Below are positions 23,398 through 26,364 of a DNA stretch of 36,208 nucleotides, piece by piece; position 1 is the stretch's first letter, and each line of letters begins with the position of its first letter. The DNA is from Lachnospiraceae bacterium. GTDB taxonomy: Bacteria > Bacillota > Clostridia > Lachnospirales > Lachnospiraceae. The position numbers and the translations under genes are program-made. The notes under the pieces were generated by a model. It saw only the letters and a list, made by a program, of their open reading frames with translations. It had not been told where the DNA came from and searched no databases. The stretch is taken from positions 1 to 36,208 of the forward strand of contig JAFRKV010000012.1 in the NCBI GenBank assembly GCA_017431515.1, written 5' to 3'.

Positions 23398-23426
23398 TTG
23401 TCTTCTCCGATCCACCTTGCTATAAT
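23398..23426 (+). promoter_or_regulatory. Promoter of the kinase/VWA cassette
   Basis: TTGTCT (23398-23403), a 17-base spacer and a perfect TATAAT (23421-23426). It lies 28 bases before the first ATG of the cassette. An imperfect inverted repeat (23321-23332 with 23368-23381, CTTTTTGACC-type arms) lies between this promoter and the apt promoter. Confidence 0.75.
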
Positions 23427-23454
23427 CAGTTACGAGAGAAAGACCTTTTGATTT

Positions 23455-24201
23455 ATGAAATCTGTTAAGCAGCGTCTGGCGGCGTTTATTCCGAGATTCA
23501 TCGGGGCGGGCACGGTTGCCCGGTTCCTGTCTTTTGTCAGTGTGCGGATTCCTGTTTCGCAAAGAAACGCGCATCTGGCGCAAAACTCCATTGCATGGAA
23601 TCAAATATGGGAAAAGGCCATGAAAGGCCGTTATATCGAGCATCAGCGGGAACTTTCCGGCATGCGGCTCGGAAAGATCACGGCGGATCGGAATGCCTGT
23701 GAGGTCATCGCAACCTATAATACCATGGCCTCCCTGTCCGCGGCAGAGGCCTCCTGGGCGAAAAAACCGGAGAAGAGCCTCCGCTACCCATGGTGGGACG
23801 TCACCAGAAAACGCACCTTTCCGGAAATGCTGTGGGAATTCGAGTCTCTCGGTCTGGCTCTGGCAGGGTATTTCGGTACCGCGCCGGGCAGGATCATAAA
23901 GTATCTGGAAAAACACGGATACGAAACCGGGACGCTTACCGGCAGAGCGATCACAGCGGAAAATGTCCTCTCTTTTGCGCGGCAGTATCGCGCGTTTATT
24001 CTGATGGCATATAATGACGGCGCAAATATCATGGCCCAGATACACACCCTCAGTATCACAAAGGAGGCCTATGGATTTCAGGTGCATAACGGAAACATGG
24101 AAGAAAAGACGTTTCCTGTATTATATGACGCCGTATGCGCAGTCAATCAAGGAAAAAGCAAGCCGATCGTTCTGATCGGCGCAGGAAGTTTCCCCGCATA
24201 A
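23455..24201 (+). CDS. Possible papain-fold (C39-like) protein, first gene of the kinase/VWA cassette
   Basis: 248 residues, not recognised with certainty. The order of a Cys in DRNACEVIATYN (Cys82), a helix-rich middle with LALAGYFGTAPGRIIKYLE (about 134-152), and a His in IMAQIHTLSI (His197) followed by VHN (211-212) is what one expects of a C39-like papain-fold peptidase or an inactive relative. The Cys is preceded by Asn-Ala rather than the usual Gln, so activity is doubtful. The basic, hydrophobic N-terminus (RLAAFIPRFIGAG) could be a membrane-surface helix, but there is no clear signal peptide. A good promoter precedes it, while the ribosome binding site is weak. The kinase gene starts ten bases after its stop, implying one transcript. 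Confidence 0.6.
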   Translation: MKSVKQRLAAFIPRFIGAGTVARFLSFVSVRIPVSQRNAHLAQNSIAWNQIWEKAMKGRYIEHQRELSGMRLGKITADRNACEVIATYNTMASLSAAEASWAKKPEKSLRYPWWDVTRKRTFPEMLWEFESLGLALAGYFGTAPGRIIKYLEKHGYETGTLTGRAITAENVLSFARQYRAFILMAYNDGANIMAQIHTLSITKEAYGFQVHNGNMEEKTFPVLYDAVCAVNQGKSKPIVLIGAGSFPA

Positions 24202-24211
24202 TCCAACCATC

Positions 24212-25594
24212 ATGAAACAAAAATCTGTCATAAAAACCGTCTGTGACGGGCGTTTTGTATGCCTTCGCATCCTGGGATGCGGCGGCGAAGGAACGGTTTA
24301 TCTGGCGCAGGACACAGTGGAATTACGTCTTGCGGCGCTGAAAGAGTATCCTTTGCATGATGGCACTGCAAAACGAATCGAAAAGGAGGCCCTTCGTCTG
24401 AAGGGTCTGTCCCATAAAGGAATCCCCGCGTTTTATGCCTTATTCCGCGAGAACGGCTGCCAATATCTTGCCATGGAATACATCGACGGAAAAAGCGTCA
24501 AGCACCTTTTGGAAAAAAAAGGCCCGCCCGGAGAAAAAGAGGCGCTCCGCATCGCATCAGCCCTTTGCACTCTGCTCCATTACCTGCACAGCAGAACTCC
24601 TGCTGTGTATTATCCGGATTTAAAGCCTTCCAACATCCTGCTGGATCGAACCGGTGCCGTCTATCTGGTGGATTTCGGCGCAGAATGCGCACATACAAGG
24701 GGCTATGCCGCCCCGGAGCAGTATCTTGCCGACGCTTCGCCGGATGCACGAACGGATCTTTATGCGCTGGGGGTCACCATGCACTATCTTCTGACCGGCA
24801 AAAATCCCAACCATCCTCCCTTTGCCTTTGAAAAGGTCAATAAATTAAATCCAAAAATAACAAAAGAAACCGCCGCGGTTGTGGAAAGGCTTCTGCAGCC
24901 ATCAACCAAAAAACGCTGGCAAAGCGCAAGAGAAGTGGAAAAGGCCATTGCAGGGATCCGTCACCGCAGAATGCGGCAGCTCGCATTCCGTGCGGCACTG
25001 GCAGCTGCCGCATGCGTGACGCTGTTTATAGGGACCGGACGATTGGAAAGCAATGCCCGCATCTCCATACAGAAGAATCCTGCAGAAGCGCACGTGAAAT
25101 CCGTTTCCCACGGCGCGGATGTGACCGAATCCATTGTGTCCAAACCGATTTTTCAAAATGCGGAAAAGATGCACCTTTCGTTTTCTCTCCCCGATGGATC
25201 CTATGAAACCTATCAGTTTCTCACAATTTCCTATGATCCGTTGTACGGAAATCTATATTACACGACGGACGGGACCGAGCCTGGGAAGGACTCCCTTCCT
25301 TATCAGGATGGTATTGTATTATCCGCCCCTTCGCAGACCATCCGCGTCTGCCAGCTTGGTTTGGATGGGGAACGCGCAGAGATCACCGGGGATTACAAAA
25401 TCACCGCAGCGGTCGAGGAGATTCCCATTTCTCCTGACAGTCCGCTGATGTGGGATATCTACTATACGCTGGGAAAATCCTGGACAGAGCCGGTTTTCAA
25501 TTATGAACTGGCGAAAATCCGGACTCTTCCGTCAGACGAGATCAAGGAGGAAGATCAATGGTTACTCGACTACATGCCTTTTTTAAAAAACTGA
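24212..25594 (+). CDS. Membrane-spanning Ser/Thr protein kinase with extracytoplasmic CHB_HEX-like domain
   Basis: 460 residues. The cytosolic Hanks-type kinase domain spans about 14-250. It has the glycine loop GCGGEGTVY (22-30), Lys44 in LAALKEY, catalytic loop YYPDLKPSNILL with Asp136, Lys138 and Asn141, DFG at 154-156, and RGYAAPEQY in the P+1 region. The HRD motif is YPD, so this is a non-RD kinase with a very short activation segment. A membrane helix follows (about 257-275), preceded by RHRRMR, placing the rest outside. The outer part contains YYTTDGTEP (349-357), typical of the chitobiase/hexosaminidase C-terminal (CHB_HEX) Ig-like domain, a probable carbohydrate or protein contact. 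No PASTA repeats are present. There is no obvious ribosome binding site, so translation may be coupled to the preceding gene. The 3' end overlaps the VWA gene by 37 bases. Confidence 0.88.
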   Translation: MKQKSVIKTVCDGRFVCLRILGCGGEGTVYLAQDTVELRLAALKEYPLHDGTAKRIEKEALRLKGLSHKGIPAFYALFRENGCQYLAMEYIDGKSVKHLLEKKGPPGEKEALRIASALCTLLHYLHSRTPAVYYPDLKPSNILLDRTGAVYLVDFGAECAHTRGYAAPEQYLADASPDARTDLYALGVTMHYLLTGKNPNHPPFAFEKVNKLNPKITKETAAVVERLLQPSTKKRWQSAREVEKAIAGIRHRRMRQLAFRAALAAAACVTLFIGTGRLESNARISIQKNPAEAHVKSVSHGADVTESIVSKPIFQNAEKMHLSFSLPDGSYETYQFLTISYDPLYGNLYYTTDGTEPGKDSLPYQDGIVLSAPSQTIRVCQLGLDGERAEITGDYKITAAVEEIPISPDSPLMWDIYYTLGKSWTEPVFNYELAKIRTLPSDEIKEEDQWLLDYMPFLKN

Positions 25595-26364
25595 TGGTGA
25601 CATTGCTGGTCGGAAGCCTTCTCATCATCGGCTGTAACGAAACAGTGCGGCGTTTTACAAAGATCGGGATGGAAAAGACCTCCAATGCCGTATGTTTTGC
25701 TCTGGATTGCAGCATCAGCATGATCGGCGACCCGCTGTCAGCAGCGTCAAATGCGGTGCAGCGCAGTCTCATGCAGTTTCCGGACGACATGGGGGCAGCC
25801 CTTGTGGTATTCCAGAAAGAGGCCAAAACACTCGTGCCGAATACGACGGATTACGGAGAGATCCTGAACGCCCTCCAGACGCTTACCGCCAGCGGCACCA
25901 CGGGCATCTCCGAGGGAATTCTGGAAGCAGACAAAGCACTTTCCAAAGTGGATGGTGCACGTTCCGTCATTTTGTTCACAGACGGAAAGAACGGAGAGGA
26001 ACGGATTTCGCCGGAAGTGGCAGCAAAACTGAAAGAGCATCATACCGCACTTTTCCTGATCGGCATTCTCGGTACGGAGGGAGATAACCTGAAGCAGATC
26101 GCGGAAGACTCCGGCGGCAGTTTTTTGTCTCTGGAGGATGGACTGCATTCCGCCGTTTCGGGCGTGGTGTATCGGGCGCAGGCAGGACGGAATCTGAAGT
26201 TTTTGCTTTTGACGATCATAGAACTTGCATTCTTCTTCGGGATCACCGTGCTTGTGTATCGCCGGAGACAAAACAAAGAACCGCAGAGCGGTTCTTTGCC
26301 AAATGCCGGTTATTTAAAACGGGAAGAAGTAAAACAGCTGATGAAAAACGGCCGGACCTCTTAA
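25558..26364 (+). CDS. Surface VWA-domain lipoprotein with C-terminal membrane anchor
   Basis: 268 residues. The N-terminus is a lipoprotein-type signal: basic MVTRLHAFFKK, a hydrophobic core, and lipobox IIGC with Cys26. A von Willebrand factor A domain follows (about 42-210) with an intact metal-ion adhesion site: DCSIS (Asp50, Ser52, Ser54), a Thr in SGTTG (114 or 115), and Asp142 in LFTDGKNG. A second membrane helix (about 218-240, FLLLTIIELAFFFGITVLVY) ends in RRRQNKE, so the VWA domain is outside and a 35-residue tail inside. The ATG has a near-perfect AAGGAGG at seven bases. The start lies 37 bases inside the kinase gene. It probably binds a ligand or partner at the surface, perhaps the outer domain of the kinase. 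Its stop codon overlaps that of the convergent ABC gene. Confidence 0.88.
   Translation: MVTRLHAFFKKLMVTLLVGSLLIIGCNETVRRFTKIGMEKTSNAVCFALDCSISMIGDPLSAASNAVQRSLMQFPDDMGAALVVFQKEAKTLVPNTTDYGEILNALQTLTASGTTGISEGILEADKALSKVDGARSVILFTDGKNGEERISPEVAAKLKEHHTALFLIGILGTEGDNLKQIAEDSGGSFLSLEDGLHSAVSGVVYRAQAGRNLKFLLLTIIELAFFFGITVLVYRRRQNKEPQSGSLPNAGYLKREEVKQLMKNGRTS
26274..26298. terminator. Perfect hairpin inside the VWA gene 3' end, possible terminator of the convergent ABC operon
   Basis: A perfect 11-bp stem (CAAAGAACCGC / GCGGTTCTTTG) with a three-base loop. It lies in coding sequence (residues NKEPQSGSL), about 63 bases past the ABC ATPase stop on the minus strand, where the tail reads TCTCC with no U-run. 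The fully paired arms and the convergent layout suggest a terminator role, but chance within coding sequence is possible. Confidence 0.4.

What the first reader, a model, noticed from the sequence alone, without database searches (positions are those of the whole stretch)
23398..26364. Three-gene cassette: papain-fold-like protein, transmembrane kinase and VWA lipoprotein
Three plus-strand genes share one promoter, with a ten-base gap and then a 37-base overlap. They join a possible C39-like protein, a kinase with an outer CHB_HEX-like domain, and an outer VWA domain on a lipid anchor plus a membrane helix. I know of bacterial kinase-VWA pairings in general but not of this set. The topology allows the VWA protein to contact the kinase ectodomain, giving a surface-sensing or adhesion-linked switch, with the first protein a candidate target or effector.
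Basis: partly seen in the sequence, partly recalled or inferred. Interest (0 to 1): 0.7.

Follow-up and report, generated by a model that had tools for sequence, protein, structure and literature searches.

The report
Kinase-VWA cassette with C39-like peptidase
A three-gene operon in a rumen-type gut bacterium joins a receptor-like protein kinase, a membrane-held VWA domain and a C39-like predicted cysteine peptidase; the set is kept across its small genus, so it is probably a real but genus-specific signalling unit, and its function is untested.

Summary
The three genes are at the stated coordinates, with the 10-base gap and 37-base overlap. All four held genomes of the genus (own included) carry the set in the same order; in two of them the proteins are only 30-46% identical to the window's. 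Window and nearest relative show purifying selection (dN/dS 0.08-0.14) and a conserved promoter region. Outside the genus the trio was not seen: 2 of 80 loci with a gene 1 relative have kinase and VWA neighbours, both from this genus. Gene 1 has no Pfam family. It belongs to a wide, mainly Lachnospiraceae family that aligns remotely with C39_2 peptidases, tetrad on tetrad (Q64, C82, H197, N212); two relatives are C-terminal modules of DUF4280 proteins, a polymorphic-toxin-like layout. The kinase keeps its catalytic residues but has a very short activation segment; its ectodomain is CHB_HEX plus an LRR-cap-like end, resembling separate proteins in larger kinase/VWA clusters of the family. The VWA protein has an intact MIDAS motif, two predicted membrane helices and an invariant cytosolic LPNAGY tail; the lipid anchor is not conserved. 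Best reading: a compact envelope-sensing kinase module with a cytosolic C39-like partner. The sensing and output steps are inferred, not shown.

The parts
23398..23426 (+). Promoter-like site TTGTCT-17-TATAAT with extended -10 (TG)
   Evidence: not above chance by count; stretch conserved in G202
23455..24201 (+). Gene 1: C39-like predicted cysteine peptidase, 248 aa, no membrane helix; predicted tetrad Q64 (23644-23646), C82 (23698-23700), H197 (24043-24045), N212 (24088-24090)
24212..25594 (+). Gene 2: transmembrane Ser/Thr-kinase-like protein, 460 aa
24263..24937 (+). Kinase domain (aa 18-242); catalytic Lys, YPDLKPSN and DFG present; only 10 residues between DFG and APE
24980..25036 (+). 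Predicted membrane helix of the kinase (aa 257-275)
   Evidence: mean hydropathy 1.82
25190..25354 (+). CHB_HEX_C_1 / Fn3_assoc ectodomain (aa 327-381)
25487..25591 (+). C-terminal segment EPVFNYELAKIRTLP...YMPFLK (aa 426-460), like the start of the LRR part of a separate CHB_HEX-LRR protein in G107
25558..26364 (+). Gene 3: membrane-held VWA protein, 268 aa; AGGAGG ribosome site read directly upstream of its start, inside gene 2
25579..25647 (+). Predicted N-terminal membrane helix (aa 8-30); Cys26 of the putative lipobox is not conserved
25690..26133 (+). VWA domain (aa 45-192) with intact MIDAS (DCSIS, GTTGI, FTDG)
26200..26256 (+). Predicted C-terminal membrane helix (aa 215-233), followed by basic residues
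26296..26328 (+). Cytosolic tail motif LPNAGYLKREE (aa 247-257); LPNAGY identical in 4 of 4 genus proteins

Best explanation
The operon encodes a compact envelope-sensing module. Shown by sequence: a kinase with a predicted inside catalytic domain and outside CHB_HEX/LRR-cap-like domain; a VWA domain with an intact metal-binding MIDAS motif held between two predicted membrane helices; and a protein without membrane helix that carries a complete C39-like Q-C-H-N tetrad; all co-oriented, tightly spaced and retained together in the genus. Inferred: the VWA domain binds a ligand or the kinase ectodomain outside; its invariant LPNAGY tail docks to the kinase or to the peptidase inside; the kinase, whose activation segment is too short for usual activation-loop control, is switched by this assembly. 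Also inferred: gene 1 is its dedicated cytosolic partner, either a cysteine peptidase set on or off by the kinase or one that trims a module component or an intracellular target.
For: Same order in 4 of 4 genus genomes (in G200 gene 1 is cut by the contig end), with other outer neighbours in G201 and G200 than in window and G202. The cassette gene 1 proteins lie together on one side of a supported branch (96/89; 3 of the 4, as G200's is too short). Purifying selection between window and G202: dN/dS 0.078, 0.136 and 0.141. Promoter region conserved with G202. MIDAS, kinase catalytic motifs and tail intact in 4 of 4. Gene 1: C82 in 79 of 79, Q64, H197 and N212 each in 78 of 79 aligned sequences (each miss a gap). 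The family profile with 18 intermediates aligns with C39_2 at P 9.8e-5 (local) and 1.1e-5 (global), HHalign probability 58-61%; controls 0.15-0.67 local and 0.23-0.96 global; in the extended alignment Q, C, H and N fall on Q, C, H and D. Separate kinase and VWA genes lie together in 4 of 12 other family genomes with such a VWA protein.
Against: Gene 1 relatives elsewhere have no kinase or VWA neighbour: 78 of 80, 20 of 20 and 20 of 20 loci (23, 2 and 6 of these loci are under 9 kb, so some flanks are short). The 20 tight neighbours scanned hold no kinase or VWA domain and are varied. The M24 gene also stays near the cassette in all four genomes, so part of the adjacency could be inertia. The C39 relation is remote: without intermediates P is 8.7e-4, probability 23%, with the VWA control at 0.095; 0 of 61 family members hit C39_2 at E 0.1.
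Confidence: 0.42

Rival explanations
1. The kinase and VWA proteins are a two-part receptor, and gene 1 is a bystander: an orphan C39-like gene that landed upstream in the ancestor of the genus and shares only the promoter.
For: Gene 1 relatives sit in many unrelated contexts. Kinase and VWA genes are linked without a gene 1 relative nearby in G107, G065, G030 and G003, with CHB_HEX-LRR genes between or beside them by Pfam in G107 and G065.
Against: Adjacency and order kept in 4 of 4 genus genomes while other outer neighbours differ; gene 1 has the lowest dN and dN/dS of the three between window and G202.
Confidence: 0.3
2. Gene 1 is a self-acting or exported toxin-type peptidase, and the kinase/VWA pair keeps it silent or releases it under envelope stress, as in a stress or defence switch.
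For: Two relatives of gene 1 are C-terminal modules of DUF4280 (PAAR-like) proteins (DUF4280 4e-14 and 1e-13), and other relatives carry long N-terminal extensions. A C39-related papain-fold class of polymorphic toxins, Tox-PLC39, is described (PMC3482391, passages seen). The kinase matches PADLOC PD-T4-6 profiles (best 4e-44).
Against: No export or trafficking domain was found and no candidate immunity gene was seen in the window. The PD-T4-6 match covers residues 9-255, the kinase domain, and kinases in general would be expected to match (inference). Gene 1 evolves slowly (dN/dS 0.078). The flanking genes scanned, two upstream and three downstream, are PRTase, M24 peptidase, ABC ATPase, permease and FAD protein.
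Confidence: 0.18
3. Gene 1 is a processing peptidase that cuts the cytosolic LPNAGY tail of the VWA protein, turning an outside event into release of a signalling complex.
For: LPNAGY is identical in 4 of 4 VWA proteins, two of them only about 30% identical to the window's, and gene 1 has no membrane helix.
Against: A similar NAGF tail in G107 lies in a genome whose gene 1 relative is on another contig, and its pairwise similarity is weak (E 0.015). No cleavage site is known.
Confidence: 0.1

Closest known systems
Larger Lachnospiraceae clusters seen here: G065 (WG, DUF6382-FHA, PP2C, kinase-TPR, TPR-CHB_HEX-LRR, VWA), G030 (PP2C, kinase-TPR, VWA, TPR-RCC1), and partly G107 (kinase-TPR, TPR-CHB_HEX-LRR, VWA) and G003 (kinase-TPR, VWA, TPR-RCC1)
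   Same: Kinase and VWA protein encoded close together, with a CHB_HEX-LRR or RCC1 protein
   Different: Here the CHB_HEX domain is fused to the kinase, TPR and LRR parts are missing, the VWA protein is short, no PP2C or FHA gene is in the cassette, and a C39-like gene is added
TerY-P triad (VWA + PP2C + kinase with zinc ribbon; Anantharaman et al. 2012, as described in PMC11090510, passages seen)
   Same: VWA domain with MIDAS encoded with a Ser/Thr kinase
   Different: No PP2C gene; the kinase has a membrane helix and ectodomain in place of a zinc ribbon; the VWA is held in the membrane
PpkA-type kinase with a C-terminal VWA domain in one protein (Pseudomonas aeruginosa; PMC1262709, passages seen)
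   Same: Kinase and VWA domain work as one set
   Different: One protein there, two here; no CHB_HEX domain and no C39-like gene mentioned in the passages seen
PknB/PrkC-type PASTA receptor kinases
   Same: Inside kinase domain, one membrane helix, outside C-terminal domain; best NCBIfam match
   Different: CHB_HEX in place of PASTA; NCBIfam score 119.5 against a cut-off of 450. G200 has a separate PASTA kinase
Peptidase_C39_2 and the polymorphic-toxin class Tox-PLC39 (PMC3482391, passages seen)
   Same: Q-C-H-(N/D) tetrad in register; two relatives are C-terminal modules of DUF4280 proteins
   Different: Asn in place of Asp; below Pfam detection for the window protein; no trafficking domain
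Cpe1 papain-like interbacterial protease effectors (PMC12136450, abstract and passages seen)
   Same: By the paper, structurally close to the C39-type peptidases ComA and LahT (that these are C39 is recalled)
   Different: Encoded with an immunity gene and delivery pathways; none was seen for the window gene

Membership tests
TerY-P triad | PP2C phosphatase encoded in the triad | tested here: not met
   None of the 3 cassette proteins and 5 flanking proteins scanned has a PP2C domain
TerY-P triad | VWA domain with MIDAS next to a Ser/Thr kinase | tested here: met
TerY-P triad | Kinase with C-terminal zinc ribbon or OB fold | tested here: not met
   C-terminal part is a membrane helix plus CHB_HEX; no such Pfam hit
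PASTA receptor kinase (PknB/Stk1) | PASTA repeats outside the membrane | tested here: not met
   No PASTA hit; NCBIfam NF033483 119.5 bits against cut-off 450
Active eukaryotic-like protein kinase | Catalytic Lys, catalytic-loop Asp and DFG | tested here: met
   ALKE, YPDLKPSN and DFG present; activity not tested
VWA domain with MIDAS | DxSxS, T and D motif | tested here: met
   4 of 4 genus proteins
Bacterial lipoprotein (VWA protein) | Conserved lipobox Cys | tested here: not met
   Cys26 only in the window; V, L, V in the three relatives
Peptidase_C39_2 | Score above Pfam cut-off | tested here: not met
   No hit for the window protein; 0 of 61 in A3 at E 0.1; 1 of 19 at 0.077; one fused relative, L015, passes (24.8 bits against 24)
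Peptidase_C39_2 | Q, C, H and D/N catalytic residues in register | tested here: met
   hhalign P 9.8e-5 local with intermediates, tetrad aligned in the extended alignment; only Cys lies in the default local alignment
Peptidase_C39_2 | Papain-like fold | not testable with these tools
Polymorphic toxin (Tox-PLC39) | N-terminal trafficking domain and adjacent immunity gene | tested here: not met
   248-aa protein with no trafficking-domain hit; downstream are the kinase and VWA genes
PD-T4-6 anti-phage kinase | Defence function | not tested
   Profile match 4e-44 over the kinase domain only

The most novel reading that the evidence does not exclude
A one-operon transmembrane switch in which an outside VWA/CHB_HEX sensor pair drives a receptor kinase that directly controls a cytosolic C39-like cysteine peptidase of a family without a Pfam model, i.e. 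a kinase-gated protease of toxin-related ancestry turned to signalling.
Probability: 0.25. Interest if true: 0.75.

Novelty: new variant of a known kind. Interest (0 to 1): 0.42.

Why it matters
Bacterial receptor kinases with outer domains other than PASTA are little studied, and how VWA proteins feed them is not known (own knowledge). This cassette is a small, complete set in which to test that. It also points to a wide, mainly Lachnospiraceae family of C39-like predicted peptidases that has no Pfam model, found both as free-standing genes and, in two genomes, as payload-like modules of DUF4280 proteins.

Tried and rejected
Lipoprotein reading: rejected, as the Cys is not conserved. LPNAGY as a sortase signal: rejected, as it follows the last predicted membrane helix and no hydrophobic stretch follows it (sortase layout recalled). 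CHB_HEX hits as kin of the kinase: of 115 of 397 genomes with ectodomain hits (own and G202 included), 13 places outside the genus were fetched; two (G107, G065) have a kinase nearby as a separate gene and 11 have none in the stretch. Two of the 11 were scanned with Pfam and are zinc-ribbon/CHB_HEX proteins near FtsK genes. No kinase-ectodomain fusion was seen in the 13; the rest were not examined. Full-length kinase search: 40 of 299 genomes (own included) at E 1e-38; only the own genome aligned through the ectodomain, the others ended at residues 242-337 (that sample held no genus relative). Mobile-element origin of gene 1: no relative in viral contigs by one pattern scan and none in plasmids; the phage collection was not searched. 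T7SS link in the genus: WXG100 in 0 of 4 genomes at E 0.01. DUF6382 in 3 of 4 genomes, not found in the own one (82% complete), and on other contigs than the cassette. The 194-aa G107 tail protein as a family marker: 2 of 200 genomes, itself and one weak match. PDB sequence profile search with the gene 1 family: best E 0.15, not meaningful. Literature, listings only: searches listed 2, 3, 2 and 3 papers, none with this trio in title or abstract start; two searches found 0; one search showed 12 of 23 and 12 of 3,306, so these two settle nothing. Searches were argument errors; 78 and 83-84 took up related terms.
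Full report
What was given and what is there. The finding names three plus-strand genes at 23398-26364. The ORFs are exact: 23455-24201, 24212-25594 and 25558-26364, with a 10-base gap and a 37-base overlap. Upstream is a divergent PRTase gene (apt-like); downstream a convergent ABC ATPase gene. One promoter-like site starts at 23398. By count it is not above chance, but alignment with the G202 relative shows a conserved block around it down to the start codon, with the rest of the intergenic region more changed. 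The window lies in a 2.35-Mb, 82% complete assembly.

Gene 1. Pfam, NCBIfam and PADLOC give nothing convincing. Relatives occur in 22 of 200 family genomes (own included) and 29 of 392 order genomes (own included). A genome-collection scan found 92 relatives and kept 80 loci, mostly Lachnospiraceae MAGs. In an alignment of 61, residues Q64, G73, C82, E83, I85, A86, Y88, N89, G138, G141, N187, H197 and N212 are invariant. The block C82-N89 is partly so by construction, as searched for the pattern CE[VA]IA[VTA]YN; in 19 sequences mostly found by whole-protein search, Q64, C82, A86, Y88, N89, H197 and N212 are also invariant. Is it C39-like? Direct Pfam evidence is weak: 1 of 19 members at 0.077, 0 of 61 at 0.1, but 3 of 10 picked longer or distant relatives hit C39_2 at 3.6e-5, 0.005 and 0.009, one over the cut-off. 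Profile comparison with 30 Lachnospiraceae C39_2 domains gave P 8.7e-4, probability 23%, for the family alone, with controls at 0.51, 0.5 and 0.095. With 18 intermediate relatives added it gave P 9.8e-5 local and 1.1e-5 global, probability 58-61%; controls with NLPC_P60 (24 domains), kinase and VWA alignments gave 0.15-0.67 local and 0.23-0.96 global. The default local alignment holds the Cys; the extended one puts Q64, C82, H197 and N212 on the Q, C, H and D of C39_2. Across 79 sequences the counts are Q 78, C 79, H 78 and N 78 (each miss a gap). Two relatives (G629, G346) are DUF4280 proteins with this domain at the C terminus; others carry long N-terminal extensions, some apparently secreted.

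Gene 2. Catalytic motifs are complete: glycine loop, ALKE, YPDLKPSN, DFG. The histidine and arginine of the usual HRD motif (recalled) are replaced. Only 10 residues lie between DFG and APE in the window and G202, against 23 in G201 and G200, so control by activation-loop phosphorylation is unlikely in the first pair (inference). After one predicted membrane helix come a CHB_HEX domain and a segment EPVFNYELAKIRTLP...YMPFLK at the very end. In G107 the ectodomain (34% identity over 161 residues) lies in a separate TPR-CHB_HEX-LRR protein, where the matching segment is followed by leucine-rich repeats. All four genus kinases end within one to three residues of this motif. I infer a fusion of a kinase with part of such a protein before the genus split.

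Gene 3. MIDAS residues are intact in 4 of 4. Hydropathy gives an N-terminal and a C-terminal helix in all four, and positive charges place both ends inside (inference). The putative lipobox Cys is unique to the window among the four. LPNAGY is identical in 4 of 4. Among the other ORFs held and searched, the wider motif was seen only in a 194-aa membrane protein of the G107 cluster, whose tail carries repeated EEKTQI-like segments; the pairwise similarity is weak (E 0.015).

Conservation of the set. VWA relatives are in 4 of 4 genus genomes (own included). In each the gene order is gene 1, kinase, VWA (in G200 gene 1 is cut at the contig end, 76 aa left). Identities to the window (gene 1, kinase domain/ectodomain, VWA) are 90, 74/83 and 75% in G202; 37, 42/41 and 30% in G201; 42 (part), 45/46 and 32% in G200. 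dN/dS between window and G202 is 0.078, 0.136 and 0.141 (dS 0.85-1.67, so rough). The M24 gene is near the cassette in all four; window and G202 share the ABC and FAD genes at 97%, while G201 and G200 share another downstream gene (82%), and G201 has a fucose-isomerase-like gene upstream. The cassette gene 1 proteins group together (96/89). Outside the genus, a tblastn recount at E 1e-3 finds kinase, ectodomain and VWA relatives in 2 of 80 loci (G202 and G201 again), 0 of 20 loci and 0 of 20 loci; 31 of these 120 loci are shorter than 9 kb. Tight same-strand neighbours elsewhere: 10 of 39 upstream and 10 of 19 downstream ones (two of the 19 being cassette kinases) were scanned; five gave no Pfam hit at 1e-5 and the rest are varied, among them transporters, NeuB, GGDEF, a chemotaxis receptor and L,D-transpeptidases.

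Kin of the kinase-VWA part. Of 12 other family genomes with a VWA relative, four have a kinase in the fetched stretch: G107, G065, G030 and G003; none of the 12 stretches has a gene 1 relative. One of the remaining eight, G137, is cut by the contig start next to a CHB_HEX-LRR-like gene. G065 and G030 also have PP2C; G065 has a DUF6382-FHA gene by Pfam and G030 a relative of it by BLAST. So the window cassette looks like a stripped, re-fused version of a family signalling cluster, with a C39-like gene added. That history is inference from domain content.

Mechanism. Shown: anatomy, intact motifs, co-orientation, conservation in the genus. Inferred: sensing outside by VWA and CHB_HEX, signalling by the kinase, output through gene 1. 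I give 0.42 to this module reading and 0.3 to gene 1 being a bystander. TerY-P, PASTA kinases and polymorphic toxins each fail a defining feature tested here. Literature listings (53 and 54 only in part) showed no paper on this trio; the library is open-access only.

Noticed in passing
window 26274-26298: Perfect hairpin CAAAGAACCGC-AGA-GCGGTTCTTTG inside the 3' end of the VWA gene; the core is kept in G202 with loop AAA. A T-rich stretch follows on the minus strand, so it may be the terminator of the convergent ABC operon overlapping VWA coding sequence; the terminator scan did not list it.
   Followed up: partly
L238, L239: Gene 1 domain fused behind DUF4280 (PAAR-like) in two family genomes, a polymorphic-toxin-like layout.
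   Followed up: partly
L004, L152: ORFs joining an EamA-like transporter (named by eye) in frame with the gene 1 domain in two loci; a real fusion or an assembly error was not tested.
   Followed up: no
L079 6884-7468: Membrane protein with repeated EEKTQI-like segments in its tail, possible phosphothreonine/FHA sites (by eye).
   Followed up: partly
L083 10153-10701: Membrane protein with repeated GTVVLPK segments next to a kinase and near a PP2C gene, possibly of the same type (by eye).
   Followed up: no
L087, L092: Zinc-ribbon CHB_HEX proteins one and two genes downstream of FtsK in the two loci scanned with Pfam; other fetched ectodomain-hit loci have similar gene-length patterns, but their genes were not scanned.
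   Followed up: no
L250-L254: Distant gene 1 relatives in another family of the order with a GCGP Cys motif; L250 has a copper-amine-oxidase-N-like domain by Pfam.
   Followed up: no
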